Origin: Rhypophila decipiens
Lineage: Eukaryota > Ascomycota > Sordariomycetes > Sordariales > Naviculisporaceae
Length of the DNA stretch: 64,000 nucleotides
Direction of reading: 5' to 3'
Assembly (NCBI GenBank): GCA_033297075.1
Contig: MU858169.1
Location: 1-64,000, forward strand
Within the stretch, counting starts at the first letter, position 1; every line of letters starts with the position of its first letter. The position numbers and the translations under genes were made by a program. Shown in pieces: positions 12,201 to 56,664 of this stretch. Under the pieces are notes generated by a model, which worked only from the letters and a program-made list of their open reading frames with translations, had not been told where the DNA came from and did no database searches.

Positions 12201-13325
12201 CAATGAATAAAATCTGCTTGTCCATGGCCATGGTCGAGCAGGTGGCTGATGCCTTTCACGGTTCACGTCATTATATGTGACCAAAGGTGTCGGCAGAATA
12301 ATGCATGATATGGATGACACTTTTCCTCACTGGACAGCACCTGTCGGCTTGGTAATGCGATAGCCAGTCGCTGGACTCCAAGCCAGATCTCGAACTCCCT
12401 TAGCCAGGCGTCTAACTCCAGAGAAAAGCAGAGAGATGGCTGGATCTGTAGAGAAGGCGAGTCTGTCTAGGTGCTGAGTTGGTTATAAGTTATAATGAAC
12501 AGTTTTCGAATTAAAGTTTCAGAGCAGCCCCTCAGTAACGTCGTTCATCTCAATCCCACATAGTGAGAAACACCAGCGAAATGGCGGTCTAGGGATTCAA
12601 TCTTGAGTATCTGGCCTATCGAAACCAATTTCACGCAGGCACGCGGTGCATGTTCTGGATTGAATCGTCCGGAGATAACGGTTTCAGAATTCCCTGCTTC
12701 TCCTTCCTTGTCTAACAAGCCTTCAGAAATTTCTAAAGCTTTAGACAGGCGTCTTTCTTCCACTATCACCCCTTGCACTTTCCACTTCTGATCATCTTAC
12801 CAGTCTTCGGCTGAAAGATCAGGCTGAGTCCCGCCTACGATAACTTTAAATCACATGTCTGATCTTTTTCCGTAGACACTTCCAACCATAAAAGCAAGAT
12901 TCCTGTCTCCTTCCACTTCTTTCCCTCTCCACTCGTCTCCAGTCGTCTCCAGCCAATTTGCTCCTCGCTCTCCTCCACGCTCAAACATCGCCTTGATTGT
13001 CGCGTTCTCAACCTCGCACTTTCAATCTCTCATTCAATTCAGCAGACCTACACACTCGGCGCGATTGAGAAGCAATCGTCGTGCTTCCTTTCTCCTCTGC
13101 ATCATTGAGCGAGCCCAAAGCCTTGCAAGTCGCGCATTGTCCAGCCTCTTCGACGTCGCAGCCTGCTTTTGCACATTCGGCCAATCACCGACCCGACACG
13201 ACACACCCATTCACTCGTCAAGATTGGCATCCAAACCGCCAGACGGCATCTTCTTTGTCGGGGCTCACTTCAAAGCAAAATCATCCAACCAGGTCGCTCC
13301 AATTTCCAGAGTCTTCTCCTTCACA
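9292..13325. other. Long intergenic region
   Basis: Four kilobases carry only short overlapping frames on both strands, with no conserved domain or convincing splice chain. The last 300 bp before 13326 are C/T-rich with many CTC and TCC runs, as is usual for fungal promoters and leaders. Confidence 0.45.
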
Positions 13326-14717
13326 ATGGCAGACTTTGCCGATCCGCGGGAGACCGAACGTCTTCAACGCGAGGAAGTCTACAGACCACCTCCTGGGTAT
13401 AACCCAATTGTTGGTGCACATTCCCATGAGACAGAGCAACACAACCCGATTGCCGAACCCGCTGCTCTACATGCTCCTCGTTCCCCGGCGGCAGTCCAAG
13501 TCGGCCAATACCAAAACCAACCCCATCAGCGGCTTATGGAACAACCAGCCATGAACGCTTACCCCCCCGACGACGAGGAAGACGAAAACGGGGTGGTCCG
13601 CCCACCGGTCAACGATGTCGTCCAAGTGCTAGACGCACGCGGTGACCTGATCCTCGTCGTGGGCCAAGAGAGGAAGGAGTTTCTCGTCTGCTCAAGAACC
13701 CTCCGACGGGCATCAAAAGTCTTTGATGATCTCTACAGCAGGCGAGTCGAAGGTCAGGATGGCCACGAGCGCCTGGACCTCAGTCACATCGGCGTCCTCC
13801 CTCTCCACCTCGTCCTCGAGATCATTCACGGCAACCATGCCAAGGTCAACCCGCACCTGACCAATAAAGAGACGCTCCATGATGTCCTCGTGGTCACGCA
13901 TCACTTCAGCATGACCGGGTGCCTCGCCCCCATCGCCGTCAAGTGGCTCAAAAAGGTCTACGACAAAGAACCGTCAGGCTTCCACAACATTGCGGTCCAG
14001 CTGTGGATCACCCACCAACTGGGACATTTGGGGTGCCTGAAGCAGACAATCTACAGCATGGTCCAGGGTGGCAGACTCAACTCTAGAGGGGAGCTGATCG
14101 GCCAGGGGGCAACGGACAATGATGAGTATCGGCGGTTTCCCACCTTGAGTCTCCTGGGCGTTCTTGGTGGGTTGATTCCACCCAAACTGCCCCACAGTTC
14201 CAATCAAGTTTCTTCTTCTAACACGGCAGGTGACTGGTGGATAGAGCAAGTGAAGGAGTGCCGCTCTCGGGTCGTGGCCCACCTAGTCAACACGGTTCGC
14301 GATGCGGTCAGAAACCTGATAGAGTCCCCTCGCATGCCAGCAGCAATGCAGACTAACGGTCCCGCTCCTAAGCCGACGGTGTGTCAGGTCCGGCAAGAAA
14401 GCCCAACCCGTAGACGGCAGTGCGACTCCCGCATGCTGGGTGCGTTTCAGCGGGCCCTGTTTGACCAGAACTGGGACAAGGTCGACAAGCCGGCCTCGAG
14501 CCCGTACAGCCTCCATCGACGCATCAACGAGGTCGCGAGGCAGACTCTGAAGGAGTACGATCCGCCGACTGATTCGCACAAGCATTGTGGGCCGTTTGGG
14601 AGGAATGGGCTCGAGCCGCTGGTAGATATTGTCAAGCGGGAGGTGGATGCTATTCCGTTTGATGAGAGGGATTTTATGAGGAGGGGGAAAATGATGGGGT
14701 TTCCAGTTGGTGCCTAG
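13326..14717 (+). CDS. BTB/POZ-like domain protein
   Basis: The frame is open from 12993, but the first ATG in it is at 13326 (context TCACAATGG), giving 463 residues. Residues 1-90 are Pro- and acid-rich and probably disordered. Residues about 95-200 have the layout of a fungal BTB-like fold: DVVQVLDARGDLILVVG, then a strand with EFLVCSRTLRRASKVFDDLY, then LPLHLVLEIIHGNH and a helical LHDVLVVTHHFSM segment. Many such proteins in ascomycetes are annotated only as BTB-containing nuclear proteins, and their partners are unknown. The C-terminal half has no domain I recognise. No intron is needed. Confidence 0.8.
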   Translation: MADFADPRETERLQREEVYRPPPGYNPIVGAHSHETEQHNPIAEPAALHAPRSPAAVQVGQYQNQPHQRLMEQPAMNAYPPDDEEDENGVVRPPVNDVVQVLDARGDLILVVGQERKEFLVCSRTLRRASKVFDDLYSRRVEGQDGHERLDLSHIGVLPLHLVLEIIHGNHAKVNPHLTNKETLHDVLVVTHHFSMTGCLAPIAVKWLKKVYDKEPSGFHNIAVQLWITHQLGHLGCLKQTIYSMVQGGRLNSRGELIGQGATDNDEYRRFPTLSLLGVLGGLIPPKLPHSSNQVSSSNTAGDWWIEQVKECRSRVVAHLVNTVRDAVRNLIESPRMPAAMQTNGPAPKPTVCQVRQESPTRRRQCDSRMLGAFQRALFDQNWDKVDKPASSPYSLHRRINEVARQTLKEYDPPTDSHKHCGPFGRNGLEPLVDIVKREVDAIPFDERDFMRRGKMMGFPVGA

Positions 14718-23036: not shown

Positions 23037-25982
23037 CCTCTGGGGAAGACGAATGTTGACAAAGAGTCGGGGTGTGGTATAGAACGTCGAGTGTATCGGG
23101 AAACGGGGTACCGTACGGCACGAAATCGAGCGGACGGGTTAGAGGAGACCAAAATCGAGAAAACCGGAGACTGTTGCTCTTGGGAGCGGAAAGCAGATAC
23201 ACCTGAGGGCAAGATTTGTTGACCTTGCACGGGCGTTGTAGGCCATCTAACAGAGATCGTTCATGTACATCGTGAGGGCGTCTTTCTCTTATTGTAAGTA
23301 AGGCGAGATGATCGAAATTGATGCACTGAGGGCGCTGTGATGTGTAGGTCCCAAGTGTACTGCTCAATTGTGGAGGTGGAGAGTACGGGAGTCGTCGGTA
23401 GGTGGGAATGGCGTTGAGGACATTCGCCGCGGTTCACACAAAGAGCGAGCAATCTGTTGTTGACCAGGGTAGGGGCCCGTGAAAGTGTCGGAAAGTGAAG
23501 GTGGAACGAAGCCGCCGACAATCCAGAGATTTCAGAGTGCACTCCCCGAAAGAGAGGGGTGAGTCGAACAAATGGGGACCAAATGTGTTCAGGATGATCG
23601 AGTTTTGACCCACCACACTGCATTAGCCGGATATTGGCGGGCCAATCGATGGTCTGTTTTTGCGACAGGAGGGGGCACCAATCGACACCAATGCAACACG
23701 AGAACCTGCGCCTGCCCTATAGCGTCGCATCCTAAGCATTGCCACTGGGCACCAAATCCAGGCGCATCAGACGGAATGGAAGACTTCCGCCGCGACCCAA
23801 TGAGGGCGCTTCGCTTGCTCGCATCAGCAAACGTTGCCCAAAGCACAAAGGAATTTTCGGCATTTATTGCTGACACCAGAGGCGTGCGTTTAATAACTCC
23901 TGGCGAGGGCGTTGGACAAGATTTCACGAACAGGGAGACATTTCCACCGCATCCCCATGATCTTCCGTCAGCCCAACTTCTGTTGCCCCCGCCAGCCTAT
24001 TCTCATCTTGTCACCGCCAGATCACTCGATGATGATGACGGTGAGCGACGAGACTTGATGCTCTTTTTGTGAAATGACTGACTTCAAATGGACGAAAGTG
24101 AAGTCGATGGCAATACTCCAATTTTCCTGCTCTCAAACGGAGTCGGGAGTCATGAGGAATGCGAAATCGGTTGGAGTCCGGGTTCGGGCTTCAGGCTGTC
24201 GTCTGGGTCAGCTTTTCCTTCACCAGCGACGCCGCAAAAGCCTGCCTGTGGGAGGAGCAAAGCAAGGCCTCCATCAAGGTTGATAAATTACAATGATGCA
24301 GGCAGGCAGAAACTACCAACACTCTTTGGAAAAGTGTTAAATCTTTCCTGAAAAGCCCTGTCCTGTCGAAAGGCCGCCTGTCAATCATGGAGGATGTCAC
24401 GTGGTCTGACGCAGTTGCTGGTGACGAGGGGTGTGCAATCAACACCCCGACCGTGTGCCCTGCACTGTCTTTTCTCGTCGTAAGCGAGGGACAGAAACGC
24501 ACACCCCTCCATCAAATCCAGTATTTCTTCCAAATTGGCAACCAGCCCAGGTCGGTTCCGAACCAGCCGCTTCCTTCAGCTTCAACGGCTTTCATTCGCC
24601 AGCCAAACTTCAGCATGAAGGGCTGAGGAAGCAGCGACGACCGGGTTTCCCTCGTGCTTCTCACAACTGATGGGCAGGTGGCGGAACCAGCCGCTTCCTT
24701 CGGCTTCAACGACTTTTATTCGCCAGCGGCTGAGGAAGCAGCGACGACCGGATTGCCCTGGTCTTTCCCACAACTGATGGGCAGGTGGTGGCTTCTCTCT
24801 GCCAGATGTCTTCTCTCACCGGTCCTTATCGGAGGAGTCAGCACAGTTGCAGATAAGATCGAGCAGACCCCCCCTCACCTGTTAGTGCTGTTCATGAAGC
24901 CCCGACTGATGGAACCTCCTGATCAGTGGTGAGCCGTGGATTCCCACGCGCTGCACATGGCAAACTCGTGGCCGGGCGGTTCACTAATGGGGACAAATCC
25001 GTTTGACTCCATATCGCATCAAAGTCTTGATCCTTTCGGTCGTCTTTGCGGACTGGGAATGACGACCTTTAAGACCTTTTGCCTCGAACCTCGCCGGCTT
25101 GTCTCGAAGTCGAGGGCCGGTAATGTGCAGTACTCGGTGAAGTTCACACTAACAGAGCCGCTGAGCCAATCTTCCAGCACATGACGAACCCCGGCCATGG
25201 AAAAAGCAGTGCTAGGCACCCGCGAGGCCGTTGTCAACGCTGTCTTCTGAACATCCTCGAGACACTTTCTTCCAAGTGACTTCTACTTTTCTTCCTCCAC
25301 AAGCGCCCCCAGTGACCCTTTGGCGAAGATTGTGGGTGAGGCTCAGACAACTACGGGGCTTATTACCCTGTTCTTCACCAGACTTGACCGGGCTCATCTG
25401 ACTCCTTTTCCGACGGTCACTCTGCGACAATAGCTCGTATGCCCTGAACACGCTCGTCGCCTGCTCCAAATACACTGACGTCGTCTGGCCGTATTCAACG
25501 TCTTGATTATCCAGTTGGACTGTTACTCGAATCCCATTTAGTCCAGCCAGCGCACGCATCTATTTCGGAGGACAAGATTCCTTTTTCCCCCTCGTTTTCT
25601 TCCCCTGCGACACATATCTGCATCTCTCTCATGCTTGGTTGAAGAAACCAACCACACGCTACGAAATACTCCAGGCTGCCTCTGTGTCATACTCTCGTTT
25701 CCCCGCGCCAGGCCGCCAGTCTTCCCACCCGCCCAATCTGAACCCACAAGGTACGGACCGCGCAGTACCTCACTGTTCACACCATCTTACCAGCCATTGA
25801 CCATAGACCCGGCGCCATTCTGGTTGGTCTATTCTTGGTCCAAATTTGCAACCTCACTTCACTTCGTTTACTTTGTGATCTTCATATATACCCAACCTTC
25901 GTTTCATTGCTTGTTCAAACATCACAATCCATTCGCAAGTGCTCTCTCTTCACCCCGCACTCACAAGAGGTCCACCCCCGCA
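23037..25982. other. Intergenic with a short tandem duplication
   Basis: No gene is convincing in these 2.9 kb. A 166-codon plus-strand frame at 23572-24072 lacks an ATG near its start and any domain. The stretch contains a tandem duplication of about 124 bp (24560-24790). The C/T-rich run before 25983 is probably the leader of the kinase gene. Confidence 0.45.
24560..24790. repeat. Imperfect tandem duplication, 124-bp period
   Basis: The sequence beginning GAACCAGCCGCTTCCTTC at 24560 recurs at 24684. Both copies end with CACAACTGATGGGCAGG. They differ by scattered substitutions and about 18 extra bases in the first copy. Confidence 0.8.
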
Positions 25983-27827
25983 ATGGGTGACCCAAGGGAA
26001 TACTCCGAGTTCTCTGAGAAGACAGAGCCGTTTTCCCAGTCAGAAATTGAAGCGCGCATGCAGAGCTCGCGCATGCAAGACTTCAACAATGGAATTGCTA
26101 GCACAGTCCCCCTCGATCGCTTGGTCGTTCCTCCGGATGAGGATATTCGCATCTTGGTTAGGCCATTGACCAGGACTCGGTCCGTCAGCCCGGGAAACCA
26201 GGACAATTGCAAATGGCTGGCATTGCACGCCGAGGTGGCCGAGAATGAGCAGTCACAGCACAAGGTCCTGGCTGTGACACAAACTTCGCGAGATATCAAG
26301 TTCTCGGTCAGAGTGCCGGTCGAGGGTCTGGACGAAGCAATGCCGCGGCCGCCGTTATGGTGCGAGCTTTACTATGATCCGGCCAGTGACAACCAGATTC
26401 TGGTCAATCGTTCAGATTTCCCATTTACCCTCACCAAGGCGTCCGCCCAGCCGGCAGGCAGTTCTGCCGAGGAATATGAAGTCAGACCGGGACTGGATAA
26501 GGCCCTGATCCCGGGGACATGGCGCATCAAGTTTAACGAGTTCGAGGTCTTGGACTTTCGCATCCTGGAAAAGAGACCAGCCAGACTCAGACTCGCGTCT
26601 AACTCGAGCTCTGACATTTCCGCGCTGAGTGACATGGTAAATTCAGCGGGGAAACGATCGTTTGTGGCCGACGAGGACGACCCGCTCAGTCCCGAAAAGA
26701 AGCACCGGCTGTCTGTAGACGACGGCAACAAGAATGATGACGGGGTCATCATGTTTCTCCCTGCAAAGACCAATCCTCTGGTTTTCCCTCTCCCTAATGC
26801 CGAGAAGGGCAAAGAGGTGGTCATGACCAACGGCCATCCTCTCCTGGAACTCCAGCCCGAGGAGACGGTCGAAATCCCTGGGGGCTGCGAGCTGGACGAG
26901 TACGCCATCACCAAGCGAGAGCCGATTGCGTCGACCAGTCTCTCGAGCGTCTTCACCGCAGACCATTCCAAGGTGCCCGACGGAGTGATTGTCGTCAAGG
27001 TACTAAAGACACGCTCGCCAAATGGCAACGGCGTCGGGGAAGGAAGGAATGTCATCCGACAAGCAGATGTCTGGCTGCGCGAGCTTCAGTACCAGGAAGA
27101 CCTGCAGCACAGGAGCATCGTCCGGCTCTACGGGGGCGACGCCCGTTTTCTGTCGCTTTACATGGAGCACGTAGACGCCCGCGACCTGTCTTCTAAGGGA
27201 ACATGGCGGAGTCCTACTACCGACCTCTTTGCCGGTGATCGCACGGATGCAGTCCGAATCCTGCGCGATATCACGAGCGCTTTGAACTACATCCACGAGC
27301 GCAACTTGATCCACAACGACATCAAACCGGCCAATATCCTGTACAGTCGGGAGCGAGGTGCTGTGCTCTGCGACCTAGGGCTGTCGACCCATTCCCGGGA
27401 TCCGCCCTCTATTGGTGGGACGCCTTGGTACGTCCCGCCCGAGTACATTGCCGTGAAGCAGCGCGCCGCGCCAAGCGACGTGTGGGCCCTGGGCGTGACG
27501 ATGCTCTACGTCTTGGGCAAAATGACCTTCCCCGACGCGAGAGGACACCGCGCACATCCGAAGCACATCCACTGGCTGATCGCCAAGGTCCACCAGAACC
27601 CACGAGACCGGAACCCGCAACCGGAAGCGGCGACTAACATGCGCCGGTGGTTGGCCGAGGTGGCTGCTGCGCGCGAGGCGTTGAATGTTGATGGAGATCG
27701 GCTCGAGAGGTTGGTCTACGAGATGCTGAAGCCTAACCCGATGCAGCGAATCAGGACGGACAAGATGAAGGAGAGGGTTGCGGTTATTGTACAGCAGGTG
27801 CTTGGGCAGCAGATTTCGGAGAAGTAA
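25983..27827 (+). CDS. Atypical Ser/Thr protein kinase
   Basis: The frame opens at 25635, but the first well-placed ATG is at 25983 (CCCGCAATGGG), giving 614 residues without introns. Residues 1-310 form a variable, fungal-specific N-terminal region. The kinase domain spans about 320-610. The ATP-site Lys339 lies in VIVVKVLK. The catalytic loop is HNDIKPANIL with His444, Asp446 and Lys448. The magnesium motif is DLG at 464, the activation-loop end is GTPWYVPPEY with Glu487, and DVWALGVTML follows. The HRD Arg is Asn and DFG is DLG. The glycine loop (REPIASTSLSSVF) lacks the usual GxGxxG. The key catalytic residues remain, so activity is possible. Substrate and pathway are unknown. Confidence 0.88.
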   Translation: MGDPREYSEFSEKTEPFSQSEIEARMQSSRMQDFNNGIASTVPLDRLVVPPDEDIRILVRPLTRTRSVSPGNQDNCKWLALHAEVAENEQSQHKVLAVTQTSRDIKFSVRVPVEGLDEAMPRPPLWCELYYDPASDNQILVNRSDFPFTLTKASAQPAGSSAEEYEVRPGLDKALIPGTWRIKFNEFEVLDFRILEKRPARLRLASNSSSDISALSDMVNSAGKRSFVADEDDPLSPEKKHRLSVDDGNKNDDGVIMFLPAKTNPLVFPLPNAEKGKEVVMTNGHPLLELQPEETVEIPGGCELDEYAITKREPIASTSLSSVFTADHSKVPDGVIVVKVLKTRSPNGNGVGEGRNVIRQADVWLRELQYQEDLQHRSIVRLYGGDARFLSLYMEHVDARDLSSKGTWRSPTTDLFAGDRTDAVRILRDITSALNYIHERNLIHNDIKPANILYSRERGAVLCDLGLSTHSRDPPSIGGTPWYVPPEYIAVKQRAAPSDVWALGVTMLYVLGKMTFPDARGHRAHPKHIHWLIAKVHQNPRDRNPQPEAATNMRRWLAEVAAAREALNVDGDRLERLVYEMLKPNPMQRIRTDKMKERVAVIVQQVLGQQISEK

Positions 27828-40772: not shown

Positions 40773-43700
40773 TCACAGCCCCGTTGCCCAAGTTCCATTT
40801 CCAAACCCGCCATTCGCCTCCATCTCGAACCTGCCCAGGCTCTCTTGCCAGTTCTGCCAGTCGAAGCCCTCCTCCATATTGACATCGCCGTCCTCGGGGG
40901 TCCAATTGGGCACCCGTAGCATTTCCCCGCTAGATCCATCACTTGCTGTTGGCCATATCCACGGCGGGGGGTTATCGTAGTTTATCAGCGGAGACGTCAT
41001 GTCAGCCCGCCCTCCATCAAGACCGCCGCTTAGTGAGTGTTGTTGCTGCCTGTTATTTTGATTGCTGTCGTGATGATTGACCTGATAACCAAGCGTCATC
41101 TCGGTGCCAATGTCACCAGCCGAGAACCCAAATGTCGCAGCGGCACCGTCATCTTTAGGTCGGGGCCATAGAGCAGTCAGGTCGGCCGGGCTGAAGGCTG
41201 GATTTGCCATGGCATCGCTAATGTAGTCCATAAATACCGGGTTATCAACGTTACCCAGGTCTAGCCCGGCGGCCTGCGCGGCGTCACTGCCCACTTGCGT
41301 CACCCCAGACTGAAACGTTGGTGGAGGGTTCTGTGGGACCGGCGGGGCGTTGACGAGCTTCCTCCACCTCTCGTGGGCAGCCATCCCTTTCACCGATCCC
41401 GAGAGAGCGCCGAACGACTCTGGTGCCGCGCGGGATCGGTATTCGAGGTCGAGTTCCAGAGCAGCTTGGGGATCAGCTTGCAGCCGCCCAATCTCAACGT
41501 CACGGTGCTTCTTCGCCTTAAAGTAGAGCTTCTTGAAGGGAAGCCAGATCGCCTTGTGGCTGATCATCTTCTCGAGATCCAGCGGCGATGGAGCAGGAGC
41601 AGAGTATAATGAGTTCAGGGCTGCCCATGCACGCTCTGCCGTCACTCCCCAAGGACGGTGGGTGACCTCAATCAACACAAATGCTACCGCGTGCCACACT
41701 GTGTAGGTCTGGAAGAGCCAGCGCCATTGCTTGCAACGTGGGTCAGTGTTGAGAAGGTAGTTGTACTCAAACATTTCTATCGCAGCGTTGAACAATCGGG
41801 CGCGTATGTCGTCCGAGAGGAGCTCCTGACCCGGGGCGGGGAACAGTAAAGGCTGATATATGACTAGTGTCATCTTGGCGATGATTATACGTGCCACGTT
41901 GCCAGCCACCCAATACATTGGGTTGTTATCGCATTCACGATGATTCAAGTACTTCTCAACCACCCGCTTATGCACGTTGGAGAGCAGCGCCTCTCGTTCT
42001 TCCAGAGACGTCGAAGCATCGCGCGGACATACTGGGGCCGAGGCAGACGCCACGGTATGCAACCGCCTGGCGACAGCAGACACCTCATAGCGAATCAGCG
42101 AAAAGGTCATGTCCGTTGGGCCTTCCCTGGGTTTAGGCAGCTCTTTGCTGTCTGGTGAGATGTCGCTGTCGTTGATATTGAGCGGCATCTGGGTGTCAAA
42201 GGCCCGGTCGACAATGGTGAGATCGGTTCCCTGATCTTCGGCAGATCGCAAATCCAAGAAGCACACCGCCCAAAACAACCGCCGCCGCATTTCGACCTCG
42301 AAGGGGGTAAGGTTGGGAAAGTTGGTACCATCCCGATGTAGTCCGAGTGCCTGACTGATACGTATAAGTAGACCAGTGAGTGTCCAAGCGAAGCGAGTGT
42401 CATCGTGCCGACGCACAAGAATGAGGAAAAGAAGGAAAGCCTGTGCAACGGTAATATCTGGTGCGTTTATAAAGTTGGCCTTGGCGAGAGCTTGTTCCAG
42501 TGCAAATCGGTATTGTTTGACGAGAACTTCTTTCTCTGACCCAAAGTTCAATTTTACCTGGTATATTGTAAGCTCAAGTCCATGCCTTGCCGGCAAATTT
42601 CACGTACCTCATCCTCGTCTAGTGATGTGATGGCGGCATAATAAATAGAAAACATCAGCGCTTCGGTTGCTGGTGTGAGCGTGTCCATATTGTTTCGCAA
42701 GTCTCTGATCAGCTTATTCATGGTTGGTACATGGAGGACCTTGAGGATTGCATCGACATTTTCCTGGTACACAGTCCAGATGAAAGGAATTTGGGATGGA
42801 AGCGGGTGTAATGGTCTGAGGTCGACATTCGAGGAGCTGTATCCGAAGATGAAAGATTGGTGGCCGATATTTGTGCGGTCCTCTTCGACGGCTGCCGGAG
42901 AGTTTTCAACGTCTGACTCTTCGGATTCGTCGTCGGTGAGGGTGTGTGTTTCTTCACGTATCTCATCGAGCTACAGAGTGTGAGCTTTGGTACGTAAGGG
43001 ATGGTCTTAGCTCATGGTAAACATTACCTCGTCGTTTATTCTGGACCATAACGCACTGCTCACGTATCTCGTCACTCCCTTTTCGTTGAGCACCAACCGG
43101 CCAAACTTTTTATGGACATCGGGAGGCGACCTGTTGACCGGCGCCGGACTCGAGTGTGAACTGGAGTTATACCCGGGCGATCCGCCTTGCCCTTGCGGAT
43201 TCGCTCTCCCTGTAGTATTTCCTGTCAGCGGCGAACCCTGACTACGCGCACTTCCGCCCCTACTTGATATCCCATCTCCTACGCCTTGCTTGGCCCGAGA
43301 TAAACTTTGTTCACCCTCATGACTACCAACCGCCTCTGGTGAGTTTCCAGCGCTCGACGTGTGGCGCACCGTCTCGATCTCGATCTGGCCGCTCAGCTCC
43401 TCCACGATGCCTTCTAGTTTTCGCAGACGCTTGACCAATTCCAGCTCTCTCTCACTCGAAGGCTGTTTGGACGGGGCGTTGGGATCTTTCGGTCGTGGTC
43501 GTCTCGGCGCCCTCCCCGGGGCTGGGAAGATACACGGGATCTGGGCTCGTCGGCAGTTCGAACAGGGCATGTGTTTGTCGCATCGGACCTGGACACGGTC
43601 AGCCAAAGCACCCACCAGCAACGATGACATTGGCATGAACAAGGCCCACCTTTCTTCTCCGACAGGTAACACAACTCCGAGGATTCAGGGCACTCGAGAC

Positions 43701-47728: not shown

Positions 47729-49640
47729 ATGGCAGCCGTGCCACAGGACATGGTTGTGTTCGAAAGTGGCCAGACGAGTACTCAACCGGAAGCGGCCATG
47801 GCCGGTCCTTCGCATGTCGGGACCGATCAACGGCAACACCGTTGTCTGCTGTCTCTCGACGGAGGCGGTGTCCGCGGTCTTTCGGCCCTAATAATCCTCA
47901 ACAATATTATGTTACAAGTGAACATCGAGCGGAAGAAGAAACGGCGTGAGTTGGAGTTGAAGCCGTGCGATGTTTTCGATCTCATTGGGGGCACCAGCAC
48001 TGGAGGGTGAGTTCAAATATTTCTTTTCTTTTAGTTCTTTCTAGCGGAAACCCTATCACATATTATGACGTCTCATGGGAGCTAACACCCCCCCCCCCCC
48101 CCGACAGGTTGATCGCCATAATGCTCGGTCGGCTGCGTATGGACGTCGAAAGCTGCCTCAAAAGATACTACCAGTTCATCCCAGACGTGTTTCAAGTTAG
48201 GGCTTCGAACCCGTTGAGAGCCCCAATCACCTTGTTGGGCATAATCAGGCCTCTCTACGACTCCAAGAGATTGGAGAAATTTATCCTCGACACGGTTGCC
48301 GCACGTGAGGGTAAGGTTGATGGAGAGGGTAAGCCTGATCGAAAGCTTGCTGCAAAGGTTTTTCTCCAAGAAGCTCGGCCTGACTGTCGAGTGTGAGTCC
48401 CACTCTTTCAATGCCACTAGAGATAATAGCAAGACCGAGATGTCTAATTCATACGAGCTTGAGACAGATTCGTCTGCGCCACGGCCGGCGAAGATTCCAG
48501 TACCTCTCTACTTAGAAACTACCTTAACACGTCACACACCGAAGCCGTCCATCCTACCATCGCTCAAGCGGCTCTCGCGACAACCGCAGCCCCGACCTTT
48601 TTTTACGAGGCGAAGATACCCATCGTCGGCACCGAAGGCAAAAACTTGAAATTCTTACGTTTCGTTGACGGAGCGCTAAAAGCAAACAACCCCGTCGAGC
48701 AGGTCAAAAAGGAGGCCGACGTGCTCTGGCCCAAGCCGGAACAGCCCGAAGGTTCGGGGCCTACACAGTATTTTGTGGACTGTCTCGTCTCGATCGGCAC
48801 CGGTGTTGGTCAGCCGCAGGAGACGAGCAGTGGTGTTTCGCAATTTCTAAAGGCGCTTGTAAAAATCGCCACAGAGACGGAAGACACGGCTACGGATTTC
48901 CGCGATAGGTGGGACTTGAACCTGGAAGAACGCCCCGACTCCAAGTCCAAGTATTTTCGGTTCAGTGTCGTGCGGGGGCTAAATACTATGGCTATTGATG
49001 CGCAGAACCCTGAAGCCAAGGTCAATACCTTGACGTTGAGTTATGTGAAAGATAAGAAGGTGAAGAAAAGCATCGATGAATGCGCAGCGATGTTAACGAA
49101 TAAACCACTTAATCCTGATGGAGTCGGTATGTCCATGTTCTTTTTCTTCTTCAAATTTCTTCAGCGTGTCAAATCCGCAAGAGCTGAGACTTTGACTAAA
49201 ACCCAAAAGTGTCTTTGATTGAGACTGGACAGAGCGCCCTGAAAAAAGAGCAGTTCACAATCGCCTTTAAAAAGTTCTTCCAAGCCGATGAACTGGTTCA
49301 TCGCCATAATCCAGACAAGTTGGACAAAGCTCGCTACGTGGCGGTTAATCTGGGCATGGCAGAGTCTTGGATCGGGATGGCGGAAGCTGAGTTAGGCCAA
49401 GAAGACGCGGATATAGAAGCAATTAGGTCTATCGGGAAACTTCTTGAAGGGGCATGCAACCGTATTGAATATGCCAAGAAGCCGGAAAAACCGTCCATGA
49501 CAGAACAAGATCCTAATATGAATGCTCAAAGAGACGTTATATCACGGCTTGGGGGAACTATCGAGGGGGCTAGGCGCGAGTTGGAGCAAGTTGTCAGAGA
49601 TCTGAGGACTGAGATCAAGTTGATCCGCCGAATAGACTAA
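47729..49640 (+). CDS. Patatin-like phospholipase
   Basis: Exons 47729-48006, 48108-48392, 48468-49126 and 49210-49640 give 550 residues with agreeing phases. The catalytic dyad is clear. The oxyanion motif is DGGGVRG at residues 44-50, the nucleophile Ser90 lies in GTSTGG (codons split by intron 1), and Asp255 lies in VDGALKANNP. This is the patatin/iPLA2 arrangement, an acyl-ester hydrolase acting on phospholipids. The C-terminal 140 residues are helical with ADELVHRHNPDKLDKARY and AMAEAEL-like patterns, possibly degenerate TPR-type repeats. Many fungal patatins are the effector part of NLR-like proteins, but no nucleotide-binding domain is present here. Intron 1 contains a run of 15 C just before its acceptor. 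Confidence 0.92.
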
Positions 49641-52947: not shown

Positions 52948-53637
52948 CTAAAGTACAAAGACGGCACCGATAGTGGCAGCTGCAAGGACGCTTAGCAGAG
53001 CCATACCATGCTGGATACCTGCGGTCCCTGCGGAAGTTGGGACGGTAGACACGCCAGATGCTATTGCTCCAGTTTCTGTAGCAGACTGTGTCGGGGTAGC
53101 TGTAGCTGGTCCATCGCAGTGCCAGTGGTCACCGTGGGCAACGCAGCCGACAGACCCGGTGGGACTGGGCTTGATGGCGGCATCGTCATCGTGGTCATCG
53201 TGGTCGTCGTCGTGATGTTCGTGATCATCATCGTGATCTTCGTGGTCGTCGTGGTCATGATCGTGATCTGGGTGAGCGGGCGCGGATGTGACGGCTGGTG
53301 GCGGAGTAGTGAGCCTCGATCTCAATAAAGTCGACGGGGAGACCGTTATTGACGTCACGCGCGGTCCATCGCAGTGCCTTGACGTAGGGGGCGCGGCTGT
53401 TAGTCTCGATTTCTCGTGGAGGCGTTACCCGCCTGCCGGTAGACGCTCCCGTGGGACGGGCTCGGTTTCAAACTGTCAGGCAGATCGGCTAACTTACCAG
53501 TGGTCGCCGTGTGCTTCACATCCGACGGACTGGGTAGGTGAAGGTGCCAGGCTGGCGGTGCCAACCGAGCCTTGGCCAAGCGCGAGCGGCAGGAGGCCGA
53601 CGAGCAGAGTGATACAAGCCTGGGAAGCGGTCTTCAT
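52948..53637 (-). CDS. His/Asp-rich GPI-anchored putative metal-binding surface protein
   Basis: Two exons, 53637-53498 and 53377-52948, flank a 120-nt intron with a GACTAAC branch site and give 189 residues. A signal peptide (CITLLVGLLPLALG) is followed by a module GCEAHGDHWHCDGP, then a linker and a stretch of about 30 residues made almost only of Asp and His, then a second module GCVAHGDHWHCDGP. A Thr/Ser-rich region and a hydrophobic end (ALLSVLAAATIGAVFVL) fit a GPI signal. The Cys/His content suggests zinc or another divalent metal. It is not recognisably Pra1/Aspf2, but it is divergently placed to the ZIP transporter and shares its Cys-x8-Cys module. Probable role: extracellular zinc capture or buffering. 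Confidence 0.82.
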
Positions 53638-53894
53638 CTTGTCGGAATGGCAACTTATGGTTCGGCTTTCTCAGCTTGATGGGCTTGATGGGCTTGATGG
53701 GCTGGCTGGAGAGAGACGAGTGACAAGGGCAGAACAGAGAACGGGTGGCTTGCATGAAGAATTTAAGCGTTGATGAATAACCGAAAGTTGCCTGTAAGCC
53801 TCCTCCACCCGAGCCGACCCGTCGGGATGCATCCTGATATTGTGCGCTGCTCGTCCTGGCATGGCGACGGGGCCTATAACTCGGTTCGCCATGG

Positions 53895-53905
53895 ACCTTG
53901 ACGGC
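53895..53905 (+). promoter_or_regulatory. ZRE-like site 1
   Basis: ACCTTGACGGC matches 9 of 11 positions of ACCTTNAAGGT. It lies 258 bp upstream of the His/Asp-rich gene. Confidence 0.25.
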
Positions 53906-54458
53906 TTCAATCGTCACAATGCCAAGGCAGACTCGCTTCCAGGTGCTCCTAGAATTGATAGCTGCGTTGCAAGGGAGAGGAACCAGTGGGTATACAATGA
54001 TCGGCGATCAACGGCAGCAGACGCATGTTTGTTCTTTTGTGTGGTGGGCTCATCATCCATAAGCCGATGGATCCTTTCATAGCTTGGAAGCGCGTGGGAT
54101 TTTCGCATGGCAGCCAATATCATCTCCGTCTTGTCACACAACATGTGGCCGGGACTCGGCGGCCATTCACGCAAATTACAATGATTGTCACTGCTAGAAA
54201 TCCATACGTAAGGCCCGTAAAGGTTCTTTTTGTGGAGCTCCAACGAGGAATATGCCGGTCGCCTATCACGGACTTGGCAGGTGTAACTTGATGTCCAGCG
54301 CGGAAAGCGTGGATGGACCCATCCGATGATGTCTTAGACTCCACTCTCGGTTCGGCGCCAAGACCCCGCCCAGAGAAAATTCGGAAGAAAAAGGGGCGGG
54401 CTGACAAGTGCCAAGAGGCGTCTTGGTTGGCTGCACAATCAATAGGCGGCATGGCGTG

Positions 54459-54469
54459 GCCCTCAAGGT
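54459..54469 (+). promoter_or_regulatory. ZRE-like site 2
   Basis: GCCCTCAAGGT matches the yeast Zap1 element ACCYTNAAGGT at 10 of 11 positions. It lies about 490 bp upstream of the ZIP start codon. Confidence 0.35.
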
Positions 54470-54476
54470 TCTCAGG

Positions 54477-54487
54477 GCCATCAAGGT
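54477..54487 (+). promoter_or_regulatory. ZRE-like site 3
   Basis: GCCATCAAGGT lies 18 bp after site 2 in the same orientation and shares its AAGGT half. It matches 9 of 11 positions. Confidence 0.3.
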
Positions 54488-54961
54488 TCACCCGACTGCG
54501 ACTACCAGTCGGTCCAGTCTGCCACTCGATCCAATCGAGATGGATTTCTGCCAGATTGCGCACATTTCGTCCCCAATGCAATTCATCCCACTGTTTCCAC
54601 TGTGCCCACGTCCATGACTGCGACAAGGATCCCACGGTCATAACCCCCCCGCTGCTCCTCCTCAATGCTGATTTTCTTCCATCGAGGTTCTCAGCTTGTC
54701 ACTCTTCCAGCCCCTGCCACCGAACAATCCATCATTTTTAAGAAGACCATAACCCCTCGCATTCCCACCACCGGCCCGTTCCGTTGGATGTACTTTTGAT
54801 ATCCATTTCCACTAACCGGGACAGCATTTTGGTCATTCTGGAATTGTTTCATATTTATTTATAATTAAAGTGGTGACCGTTCGACCAAGTGCCCCATAGC
54901 ATCATCAGGGGCGTAGCGCCATTTTATTTCGTCATCGTTCTATCCCATATCAACATCAAGA

Positions 54962-56664
54962 ATGGTCCACATCGGACAGACGGTCAGCCTCTATGGCTTG
55001 TTTGGCCTCGCCATACTCGGATCTGTCAACGGCCACCCGCACCCGACGCCAGAAGAAATAACCGATTGCCACCTGGAGGATTCTCAAATGTGAGCTTCCT
55101 ACTCTCAACCGTCATACATCTTACCTTGTTCTGGAAGCTGACGATTATTCAGACATTGTGTGGCTGGCTCAGAGGAGTACATTGTCAAGTTCACTCCCAG
55201 CTCCCCCAACGACATTCCAACGTCCTTCAGTGGCTGCCATGAGCATGGTGCCTCATTGTGAGTTCCCAAAGTACATGTCGACCCACCTGTCGACCTCCTT
55301 GCTGACGCATCCATCAGATTTTGCCAAGGGCCAGATGGTTCAGATGTCTCGGTAGTTGTGGCGCACGATCATGACCATGAGGACGACCATGAGCATGAGC
55401 ATGAAGAAGACCACGACCATGAGGACGACCATGAAGGTCATGAGCACGGCGATGAGGAAGCCGGCACCGAAGTTGAAGAGTCCACTGAAGGCCTCAGCTG
55501 CCACTTCCATGCTGGAGTAGAGTAAGTACATTCGATCATTCTTCCATTTCGTCACAGTGACTTACACATATCAACAGACACTGCACTGGTGGAGACGCAG
55601 AAACCAGACAAAACACCTGCTCGCGCGTCCAACGTGACTACAACATCCCTCTCCGGATTGGGCTCATTTTCGCCATGCTTGCTACCAGCACGCTCGGCGT
55701 CTATCTTCCCATATTCGCAGTCTCCTTCATGAGGCCGGAGCACATCGTCTTCACAGTCCTGCGGCAGTTCGGCACCGGTGTCATCATCTCAACTGCGTTC
55801 GTCCACCTCTTCACGCACGCGAACCTGATGTTCCAAAACGAATGTCTCGGAGACAGAATCCAATATGAGTCGACGGCGGCCGTGCTTCTTATGGCAGGTC
55901 TCTTCTTGTCTTTCATGATCGAGTATGCCGGTGTGCGTCTGGTTCAGTGGCACCGCGCCAAGTCGGCCTCTAAGAGCGTCGAGGACTCGTCAGATGGAGC
56001 TTCCCTGCAGAAGGTGAACACGTTGAGCGCGGAGATGATTAACATTTATGTTCTCGAGGCGGGCATCATATTCCATTCGTTCCTCATTGGCCTCACCCTT
56101 GTGGTATCGGGAGATGCCTTCTTTATCACCCTGTTCATCGTTGTCGTCTTCCATCAGTTCTTTGAGGGACTTGCTCTGGGCACACGCATTGCTGCGCTGG
56201 GACTCACACCTCGTGCTGCACTTCCATTGCCCGGGACCGGACACAGCCATGGGCATCACCATGACCACGTTCAGGTGACGCATAAAGAGTCCTCTCCAGT
56301 GATTGAACAATCACCATCAGAGAGGACTCTGAGCAACGAGAGCGAGGTGACACCGACGGTATCGTTCACCAAGAAGGTTATCCTCGCGGCCTTGTTTGCT
56401 TTCGTCACACCAGCGGGCATGGCTCTTGGCACCGGGATCCTGGGTCACTTCAACGGAAATAATCCGGCCACGCTGATCGCCATCGGCACTTTGGATGCTT
56501 TCTCGGCTGGTATTCTCGTGTGGGTTGGCGTCGTCGAGATGTGGGCTCAAGACTGGATGTTGGGTGGCGAGCTGACCAACGCACGCCCCGTCAAGACAAT
56601 CCTAGGACTAGGAGGGTTGATCATGGGTATGACCTTGATGAGCTTGCTAGGGAAATGGGCTTGA
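54962..56664 (+). CDS. ZIP-family zinc transporter with a Cys/His-rich extracellular head
   Basis: Exons 54962-55089, 55153-55257, 55318-55521 and 55578-56664 give 507 residues. All three introns are phase 2. Signal peptide: LYGLFGLAILGSVNG. The head has three modules, DCHLEDSQIHCVAG, GCHEHGASLFCQGP and SCHFHAGVEHCTGG, with a His/Asp/Glu-rich stretch between the second and third. The membrane part begins PLRIGLIFAMLATSTLGVYL and includes ISTAFVHLF, the TM4 signature IIFHSFLIGLTL and the TM5 signature FHQFFEGLALG. The cytosolic loop has a His cluster (HSHGHHHDH). This is the architecture of fungal high-affinity plasma-membrane zinc importers such as ZrfC and Zrt1. Induction by low zinc and alkaline pH is likely by analogy. 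Confidence 0.94.

What the first reader, a model, noticed from the sequence alone, without database searches (positions are those of the whole stretch)
53050..55600. A Cys-x8-Cys metal module shared by two divergent genes, cut by an intron at the same codon and phase in four of five copies
Seen in sequence: the secreted His/Asp-rich protein has modules GCEAHGDHWHC and GCVAHGDHWHC, and the ZIP head has DCHLEDSQIHC, GCHEHGASLFC and SCHFHAGVEHC. All have exactly eight residues between the Cys, usually with His at +3 and +8, and mostly a Gly two residues after the second Cys. In the first copy of the secreted protein and in all three ZIP copies an intron splits the codon of residue +7 in phase 2 (TG|G, AT|A, TT|A, GA|A). 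ZIP exons 2 and 3 are therefore symmetrical 2-2 exons that can be duplicated without breaking frame. Inference: the module spread by exon duplication within the locus, between a transporter and its secreted partner. The second copy in the secreted protein has no intron and shares 23 nt with the first, suggesting a later intronless duplication.
Basis: partly seen in the sequence, partly recalled or inferred. Interest (0 to 1): 0.9.

Follow-up and report, generated by a model that had tools for sequence, protein, structure and literature searches.

The report
Zinc transporter and partner share hairpin
In this mould, a zinc-transporter gene and the gene beside it for a predicted surface-anchored protein repeat the same ten-residue Cys/His module, predicted to fold as a hairpin that likely holds zinc, and in four of five copies a predicted intron cuts it at exactly the same base, which suggests that the transporter and its likely helper share one building block by descent.

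Summary
Three modules of a ZrfC/Zrt1-type ZIP and two of a divergent signal-peptide protein are C-x8-C, and in four of five a predicted intron splits codon +7 in phase 2. A database protein identical to the spliced 189-aa model exists (Rhypophila decipiens).

Unspliced database ORFs show the same intron in relatives: 19 of 32 unannotated ORFs of the secreted family (17 phase 2, two phase 1) and 35 of 98 unannotated ZIP ORFs, all 35 with a phase-2 signature; the rest are uninformative. The genes share a contig in 25 pairs, nine with consecutive tags. AlphaFold predicts one hairpin register for all modules, weakly for ZIP module 3, with His on one face.

Exon duplication inside the ZIP is well supported. 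Common descent of the secreted module is plausible but weakly supported in sequence, and 'later intronless duplication' is not favoured. The partner is not Pra1/Aspf2, whose gene lies on another contig. I judge it a second, likely GPI-anchored, ZIP-linked zinc-capture partner. Metal binding, splicing and anchoring are untested.

The parts
52948..53637 (-). Gene of the PF28209-family surface protein (189 aa): signal peptide, module 1, His/Asp-rich linker, module 2, hydrophobic C-terminal tail (predicted GPI signal); exons 53637-53498 and 53377-52948
   Evidence: identical database protein P0001 = QBC37DRAFT_29303 Rhypophila decipiens
53498..53520 (-). Module 1 (GCEAHGDHWHC) 5' part, C40 to the first two bases of codon +7 (W47); continues at 53377-53371
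53378..53497 (-). Predicted intron, 120 nt, phase 2 in codon +7 of module 1 (TG|G), GTAAGT...CAAG
53182..53274 (-). His/Asp-rich linker between the two modules (residues 82-112)
53116..53145 (-). Module 2 (GCVAHGDHWHC), C125-C134, no intron; shares 23 nt with spliced module 1
53638..54961 (.). 1,324-bp shared divergent promoter region with three CARGGT-core sites: 53891-53905 (-), 54459-54473 (+), 54477-54491 (+); 1, 1 and 2 mismatches to the A. fumigatus ZafA ZR consensus
54962..56664 (+). ZrfC/Zrt1-type ZIP transporter gene (507 aa), exons 54962-55089, 55153-55257, 55318-55521, 55578-56664
   Evidence: Pfam Zip 126.3 bits against cut-off 35.1; database relative P0121 98% identical in alignment
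55067..55159 (+). ZIP module 1 (DCHLEDSQIHC), C36-C45, split by predicted intron 55090-55152 (AT|A, phase 2)
55235..55324 (+). ZIP module 2 (GCHEHGASLFC), C71-C80, split by predicted intron 55258-55317 (TT|A, phase 2)
55499..55584 (+). ZIP module 3 (SCHFHAGVEHC), C139-C148, split by predicted intron 55522-55577 (GA|A, phase 2); same ten residues as in the zinc-binding peptide of C. albicans Zrt1
55153..55257 (+). ZIP exon 2, 105 nt, symmetrical 2-2 exon (tail of module 1 to head of module 2)
55318..55521 (+). ZIP exon 3, 204 nt, symmetrical 2-2 exon (tail of module 2, His/Asp/Glu-rich linker, head of module 3)

Best explanation
Two divergent genes of this likely Rhypophila fungus, a ZIP-family metal transporter and a predicted GPI-anchored surface protein, repeat one ten-residue Cys-x8-Cys module that is predicted to fold as a beta-hairpin and likely holds zinc, and a predicted intron cuts four of the five copies at the same codon and phase, which likely reflects common descent of the module-coding exons. 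Shown: the spacing, the offset of the splice signals, its recurrence in unspliced ORFs of relatives of both genes, and the presence of both genes on one contig in other fungi. Predicted: the hairpin, with the two Cys opposite each other on one side and the His (+1/+3/+8 in ZIP module 3, +3/+6/+8 in the partner) on the other. Inferred: under zinc shortage a ZafA/Zap1-like activator would turn on both genes from the shared promoter; the partner, tethered to the outer membrane leaflet or wall, would trap Zn2+ on its His faces and His/Asp-rich linker and pass it to the transporter's own hairpins, from which it would enter the ZIP pore. Inferred for the history: the intron-bearing hairpin unit multiplied inside the ZIP by duplication of 2-2 exons, the partner arose from such exons (possibly an inverted copy of the transporter's ectodomain), and introns were later lost from some copies.
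For: Exact offsets and phases. Split modules elsewhere in the own genome: none convincing among 66 donor sites; no second copy of either module region above noise. Secreted family: 19 of 32 unannotated entries show an intron at codon +7; 14 have 'RHC' (AG|G acceptor read in frame, phase 2), three end '...GDHW' at the donor, two Fusarium-like ones show phase 1 (several of the 19 are close relatives of one another, e.g. P0081/P0086 and P0083/P0088/P0094, so they are not 19 independent cases). Spliced/unspliced pairs: P0073 and P0046 (Neurospora intermedia) identical at 166 of 166 positions apart from a 20-aa insert between W(+7) and H(+8); P0080 and P0053 (Coniochaeta) 168 of 171 with an 18-aa insert at the same place. 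ZIP family: of 98 unannotated entries 35 begin upstream of an 'HC' that lacks its module head, and the residue before HC is R in 31 and S in 4 (AG|A/G or AG|C/T, phase 2) (two annotated entries are R and A). Frame-shifted reads in P0257 and P0290 (AISTPVLSK, AIFMPVLSK) fit CHFHAGV followed by GA|GTAAG and none of the three other tails tried. Linkage: 25 of 87 annotated partners share an exact contig length, and the organism, with one of 111 annotated ZIPs, nine with consecutive locus tags. Same hairpin register in all five modules (ZIP modelled on P0121). His at +1/+3/+6/+8 in 50-75% of cells and 0-0.6% elsewhere inside the module, over 708 non-redundant modules. Published: zinc binding of a C. 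albicans Zrt1 peptide holding CHFHAGVEHC (PMC9780748 passage); deletion of MYCTH_2307966, the ZIP with the tag next to the partner MYCTH_2307967, removes the zinc response of germination (PMC13170357 passages); the partner's relative PADG_03277 is listed as secreted with a Blastomyces ortholog induced in infection (PMC5040785 passage).
Against: The secreted module does not match the ZIP's membrane-proximal module better than controls (9 of 60 reach it), and the four introns show no sequence similarity. The secreted module lacks the His at +1 found in nearly all ZIP copies (3% against 98-100%). The shared order 'module, His/acid-rich linker, last module' holds in 20 of 28 chosen partners but only 12 of 25 chosen ZIPs, and 11 of the 25 have no such linker. 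Complete modules in unannotated entries (13 of 32 without intron evidence in the secreted set; 26 of 98 ZIPs) may include genes without the intron. No ZR site in the promoter matches the full consensus, and 14 of 1,254 same-size windows hold as many near-matches. Hairpin confidence is good for ZIP modules 1-2 (block means 91-92) and the secreted modules (81-84, with 69 just before module 1) but low for ZIP module 3 (50-53). Only nine of 25 pairs are shown to be neighbours; Dactylella's tags are not consecutive. No RNA, metal or localisation data.
Confidence: 0.58

Rival explanations
1. Convergence: the two families evolved C-x8-C His hairpins independently, and introns were inserted, or kept, in parallel at a favoured site. 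Only the ZIP copies are homologous to each other.
For: Weak profile similarity between families, none above controls for ZIP module 3; different His positions; no similarity between introns.
Against: Four introns at one offset is about 5e-9 under random placement; the upstream exon bases differ (AT, TT, GA, TG), so no common insertion site is seen; the intron is found at this codon in relatives of both families; the predicted hairpin register is the same.
Confidence: 0.25
2. Disulfide-stapled hairpin: the Cys pair forms a disulfide and the module mainly mediates docking between partner and transporter, while zinc is bound chiefly by the His/Asp-rich linkers.
For: The two Cys are predicted opposite each other, on the side of the mostly non-polar +2/+7 residues, in an extracellular (oxidising) setting (the facing is deduced from strand limits, coordinates were not seen); many members have separate His/acid-rich linkers.
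Against: A peptide with the module-3 sequence is reported to bind zinc through three imidazoles and a thiolate (PMC9780748 passage); His is almost invariant on one face, which docking alone would not demand.
Confidence: 0.3
3. Gene-model artefact or coincidence: the introns or the small gene are not real.
For: No RNA evidence could be fetched.
Against: Identical database protein, 126 database relatives at E up to 0.01, unspliced/spliced pairs in relatives.
Confidence: 0.03

Closest known systems
Pra1-Zrt1 / Aspf2-ZrfC zincophore loci
   Same: A ZrfC/Zrt1-type ZIP beside a divergent gene for a His-rich extracellular protein with a Cys...HC motif; published synteny and shared promoter (PMC3386192, PMC6070888, PMC9780748, passages seen)
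   Different: The partner here has no HRXXH domain, carries repeated C-x8-C rather than one C-terminal C-x9-C motif, and ends in a hydrophobic tail; the genome's one HRXXH match is on another contig
ZrfC of Aspergillus fumigatus
   Same: ZIP with a long extracellular N-terminus bearing several zinc-binding motifs (four in ZrfC; PMC4343018 passage)
   Different: Three motifs here; introns are not mentioned in that paper's text (term count 0)
Pfam PF28209 proteins
   Same: The identical database copy of the partner carries this domain label
   Different: No description was available here; the model is absent from the tools' Pfam copy
BbZIP (bacterial ZIP structures)
   Different: The aligned part begins at model residue 157, after the modules

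Membership tests
ZIP (SLC39), ZrfC/Zrt1 type | Pfam Zip domain above cut-off | tested here: met
   126.3 bits against 35.1
ZIP (SLC39), ZrfC/Zrt1 type | Eight transmembrane helices, ZIP fold | tested here: met
   Eight helices in the P0121 model, the eight best PDB rows are BbZIP; modelled on the near-identical relative, not on the window protein
ZIP (SLC39), ZrfC/Zrt1 type | Long N-terminal ectodomain with repeated Cys/His motifs | tested here: met
   Three C-x8-C modules; 2-5 in 25 chosen ZIPs
ZIP (SLC39), ZrfC/Zrt1 type | Zinc transport | not testable with these tools
   -
Pra1/Aspf2 zincophore (HRXXH, PF13933) | HRXXH domain in the partner | tested here: not met
   No PF13933 hit in the 189-aa protein at E up to 1; the only genome match is at C401
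Pra1/Aspf2 zincophore (HRXXH, PF13933) | C-terminal CHTHxxGxxHC (C-x9-C) | tested here: not met
   C-x8-C in both copies; the C401 gene has CHTHADGVLHC
Pra1/Aspf2 zincophore (HRXXH, PF13933) | Shares the upstream region with a ZIP gene | tested here: met
   Divergent genes 1,324 bp apart
PF28209 | Domain label on the protein | tested here: met
   Precomputed on P0001, identical to the window protein; not re-scanned, model missing
GPI-anchored surface proteins | Signal peptide and C-terminal anchor signal | tested here: inconclusive
   Hydrophobic N- and C-terminal helices in sequence and model; some relatives are named GPI anchored; no dedicated predictor
ZafA/Zap1 zinc regulon | ZR motif DYYVYCARGGTVYYY in the promoter | tested here: inconclusive
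   Three CARGGT-core sites with 1, 1, 2 mismatches, none perfect

The most novel reading that the evidence does not exclude
The transporter made its own partner: across a two-way promoter, the intron-bearing ectodomain exons of a ZrfC-type ZIP were copied in reverse to give a GPI-anchored zinc trap built of the same hairpin, creating a second ZIP-linked zinc-capture system, independent of Pra1/Aspf2, that is kept through much of the Pezizomycotina.
Probability: 0.32. Interest if true: 0.8.

Novelty: new variant of a known kind. Interest (0 to 1): 0.62.

Why it matters
Pra1/Aspf2 is regarded as the fungal zincophore, and genomes where it is lost or lies elsewhere pose the question of what takes its place at the transporter. 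Here a conserved and, as far as my searches show, undescribed surface protein sits there and is built from the same intron-cut hairpin as the transporter. If right, it gives a second route of zinc capture to test in laboratory fungi, and a rare traceable case in which an intron position links a transporter's receptor domain to its extracellular partner. The module string is in no held paper, and the listings showed no paper on such a partner; locus tags of relatives turned up in two papers on other subjects.

Tried and rejected
DNA of other fungi to map introns directly: none in viral contigs or genome contigs, so unspliced database ORFs were used instead. Complete-module ORFs were set aside as uninformative (transcripts, spliced models or intronless genes cannot be told apart). 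Homology of the four introns by sequence: none. Chance explanation: rejected. A first acceptor scan of the own genome was too strict (YAG only) and missed the window's own secreted module; it was redone. Partner as an Aspf2/Pra1 protein: rejected. gzbA of A. fumigatus as the ortholog of the partner: considered from PMC6070888 passages, dropped because nothing seen identifies its sequence. PDB sequence matches: none for P0121 (E up to 0.001) or the A1 profile (E up to 1). In the VIA-align listing the aligned ranges start at model residue 128 or later; one domain filled the list, so this says nothing about the ectodomain's fold. Locus-tag counter-examples: four species have both proteins with distant tags (jhhlp_007808/002965, FSARC_3352/10719, FZEAL_2971/2443, MKZ38_002712/009985), possibly because the listed ZIP is another paralog (120 of 893 hits were shown). 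Six annotated partner entries show only one complete module (P0077, P0103, P0107, P0108, P0109, P0118); they were not among the 28 aligned. Papers: PMC12893592 and PMC12516256 passages gave nothing on this family, except a reference-list entry (Garstka et al. 2024, on ZrfC taking zinc from the zincophore), itself not read.
Full report
What is there. On the + strand a ZIP-family transporter gene (54962-56664, four exons, 507 aa) and on the - strand a 189-aa protein gene (53637-52948, two exons) diverge from a 1,324-bp intergenic region. The ZIP has Pfam Zip at 126.3 bits. The small protein has no Pfam match above cut-off in the tools' copy (best ZrgA, 17.1 bits against 27.4, over the His/Asp stretch), but a database protein identical to the spliced model exists, QBC37DRAFT_29303 of Rhypophila decipiens, labelled PF28209; that Pfam model is not in the tools' library. 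This identity also names the likely source organism and supports the intron. The database ZIP of Rhypophila sp. PSN 637, P0121, follows the spliced ZIP model across all three introns (98% in the alignment, 95% by BLASTP).

The observation. Five modules, all C-x8-C; four of them are interrupted by a predicted intron exactly 23 nt after the start of the first Cys codon (phase 2 in residue +7). Random placement of four introns gave a shared offset in 0 of 2,000,000 trials (analytic 4.9e-9). The 23-nt identity of the two secreted copies spans the splice junction. Donor-half patterns found 29 and 40 rows in the own genome, 66 distinct sites. My first acceptor scan allowed only YAG and missed the window's own AAG; with any AG six candidates remain, three of them the window's and three without a long open frame on one or both sides. 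Protein queries found no other copy of either module region above noise (best other match to the partner E 0.017).

Relatives of the partner. One search found 126 proteins (120 listed); by the organism names (classes recalled) they come from Sordariomycetes, Orbiliomycetes, Eurotiomycetes, lichen fungi and others. An alignment of 28 that I chose (A1, the window's own included) shows 2-4 copies of SPTxSxGC-x-x-HGDHWHC-(D/E)GP (counts), a His/acid-rich stretch between modules in 26 of 28 and a hydrophobic C-terminus in most. In the longer list six annotated entries show a single complete module. AlphaFold leaves most of the protein at low confidence, except for a hairpin at each module.

Introns in relatives. 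Fungal DNA could not be fetched. Instead I used database ORFs that appear to have been called without regard to introns. When an ORF runs through or starts in the intron, the acceptor plus the last base of codon +7 is read as one residue before 'HC': R or S means AG|N in phase 2, G means phase 1. In the secreted family 19 of 32 unannotated entries are informative: 14 show RHC, three stop at ...GDHW (as TG|GTAA would give), and two Fusarium-like entries show phase 1 (GHC; one of them also has HCK, as T|GTAAG would give, in its last copy). The other 13 show no such break and are uninformative; some of the 19 are near-duplicates. P0073 equals the annotated Neurospora protein P0046 at 166 of 166 positions except for a 20-aa insert exactly at the junction; P0080/P0053 (168 of 171) and P0068/P0042 (159 of 188) behave alike. 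In the ZIP family 98 unannotated entries were classified: 35 begin upstream of an orphan 'HC' before the transmembrane part, with R in 31 and S in 4; 26 have a complete module 3; 22 start after it; 15 had no recognisable anchor. One search, over all 239 ZIP entries, lists 37 orphans, the 35 plus the annotated P0248 (R) and P0253 (A), which seem to lack their true ectodomain. Frame-shifted reads in P0257 and P0290 fit a GA|GTAAG donor and none of three other tails tried. So the intron at codon +7 appears old in both families. The phase-1 cases look like a one-base slide, and in P0116 two copies of one ORF share it, which suggests that copies were duplicated or converted together with the intron; this is inference.

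Which copy has the intron varies. It is the first copy in Rhypophila and in Neurospora-like, Coniochaeta-like and Aspergillus-like entries (P0073, P0093, P0080, P0068), and the last copy shown in P0083, P0088, P0094 and P0116. The annotated Colletotrichum sojae protein P0077 also carries intron-like residues in its second module.

Common descent of the modules? Within the ZIP, module 3 and the other copies match strongly (28.4 against a control maximum of 15.9). The secreted modules match the ZIP's CHxHG-type copies (15.7, probability 49%; 0 of 60 controls reach it) but not module 3 (10.6; 9 of 60 reach it) (from 238, 139 and 331 non-redundant modules). In both predicted structures the strands end at about +3 and restart at about +6, so that C0 would lie opposite C9; ZIP module 3 is modelled at low confidence (block means 50-53). 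In all three module sets His is confined to +1, +3, +6 and +8, one face of such a hairpin, and practically absent from +2, +7 and the turn (the secreted set was selected with His at +3 and His/Asp at +8, the ZIP sets with at least one His, so those columns are not independent). The exons' upstream bases differ (AT, TT, GA, TG), which speaks against a common insertion site. I conclude that common descent is more likely than not, but that it hangs on the intron position.

The gene pair. Of 87 annotated partners and 111 annotated ZIPs with a contig length, 25 pairs share the exact length and the organism, from Sordariomycetes and the orbiliomycete Dactylella; nine have consecutive locus tags (V8F20_007862/3, B0H66DRAFT_540441/0, NEMBOFW57_003644/5, MYCTH_2307967/6, OQA88_3512/3, VTK73DRAFT_10312/1, VTI74DRAFT_5402/3, EsH8_I_000211/2, FDECE_3107/8). 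In the other 16 only a shared contig is shown (some are megabases long; Dactylella's tags are not consecutive). The ZIP list was cut at 120 of 893 hits, so 25 is a lower bound; four species show distant tags. Orientation is known only here.

Comparison with the known. Published work describes ZrfC/Zrt1-type ZIPs linked to the zincophore Pra1/Aspf2, zinc binding of a C. albicans Zrt1 peptide containing the ten residues CHFHAGVEHC, and of the C-terminal Aspf2 peptide (passages of PMC3386192, PMC9780748, PMC12663325, PMC4343018). The partner here fails the defining tests of Pra1/Aspf2 (no HRXXH, C-x8-C instead of C-x9-C). The genome's single HRXXH match, an ORF ending in CHTHADGVLHCE, lies on a 10,345-bp contig without a ZIP hit. 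It works like a zincophore locus in layout, but is not a member of that family. The module string is in no held paper; listings for a GPI-anchored or otherwise novel zinc partner and for exon or intron work on fungal ZIPs showed nothing on it.

Mechanism. Inferred: co-induction from the shared promoter, which holds three CARGGT-core sites with 1, 1 and 2 mismatches to the ZafA consensus (14 of 1,254 windows of that size hold as many; consensus from PMC6070888 passages), zinc capture at the surface by the partner, and transfer to the transporter's own hairpins. Independent hints: deletion of the ZIP of the same pair in Thermothelomyces makes germination insensitive to zinc (PMC13170357 passages), and PADG_03277 of the partner family is listed as a secreted protein with an infection-induced ortholog (PMC5040785 passage). 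Metal binding, anchoring and transfer remain untested.

Noticed in passing
G000 contig C401 7308-7970 (locus L009, L086): The genome's only HRXXH (Pra1/Aspf2) match, in an ORF ending CHTHADGVLHCE without an intron in that motif, on a 10,345-bp contig with no ZIP match; Aspf2-ZrfC synteny is thus not seen here.
   Followed up: partly
P0099, P0116 (Fusarium-like ORFs): The module intron appears in phase 1 instead of phase 2, in two copies of the same ORF in P0116: a one-base intron slide apparently shared by copies.
   Followed up: partly
P0248 (Setomelanomma holmii), P0253 (Epicoccum nigrum), P0077 (Colletotrichum sojae): Annotated proteins that seem to start inside, or carry residues of, the module intron: probable gene-model errors that hide the ectodomain or a module.
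   Followed up: no
P0121 model, residues 30-92: ZIP modules 1 and 2 are predicted at block means of 91-94 as two hairpin-plus-strand repeats of about 35 residues, the length of the symmetrical exon 2; a small all-beta ectodomain that was not searched on its own.
   Followed up: no
window 56230-56290: A second His-rich stretch (GHSHGHHHDHV) in a loop of the ZIP's transmembrane part.
   Followed up: no
window 25542-27827 (+), 40773-42599 (-), 48463-49218 (+), 12876-14717 (+): Other window ORFs with a protein kinase, a fungal transcription factor, a patatin and a weak BTB domain (ten ORFs scanned, six without a match); no link to zinc seen.
   Followed up: no
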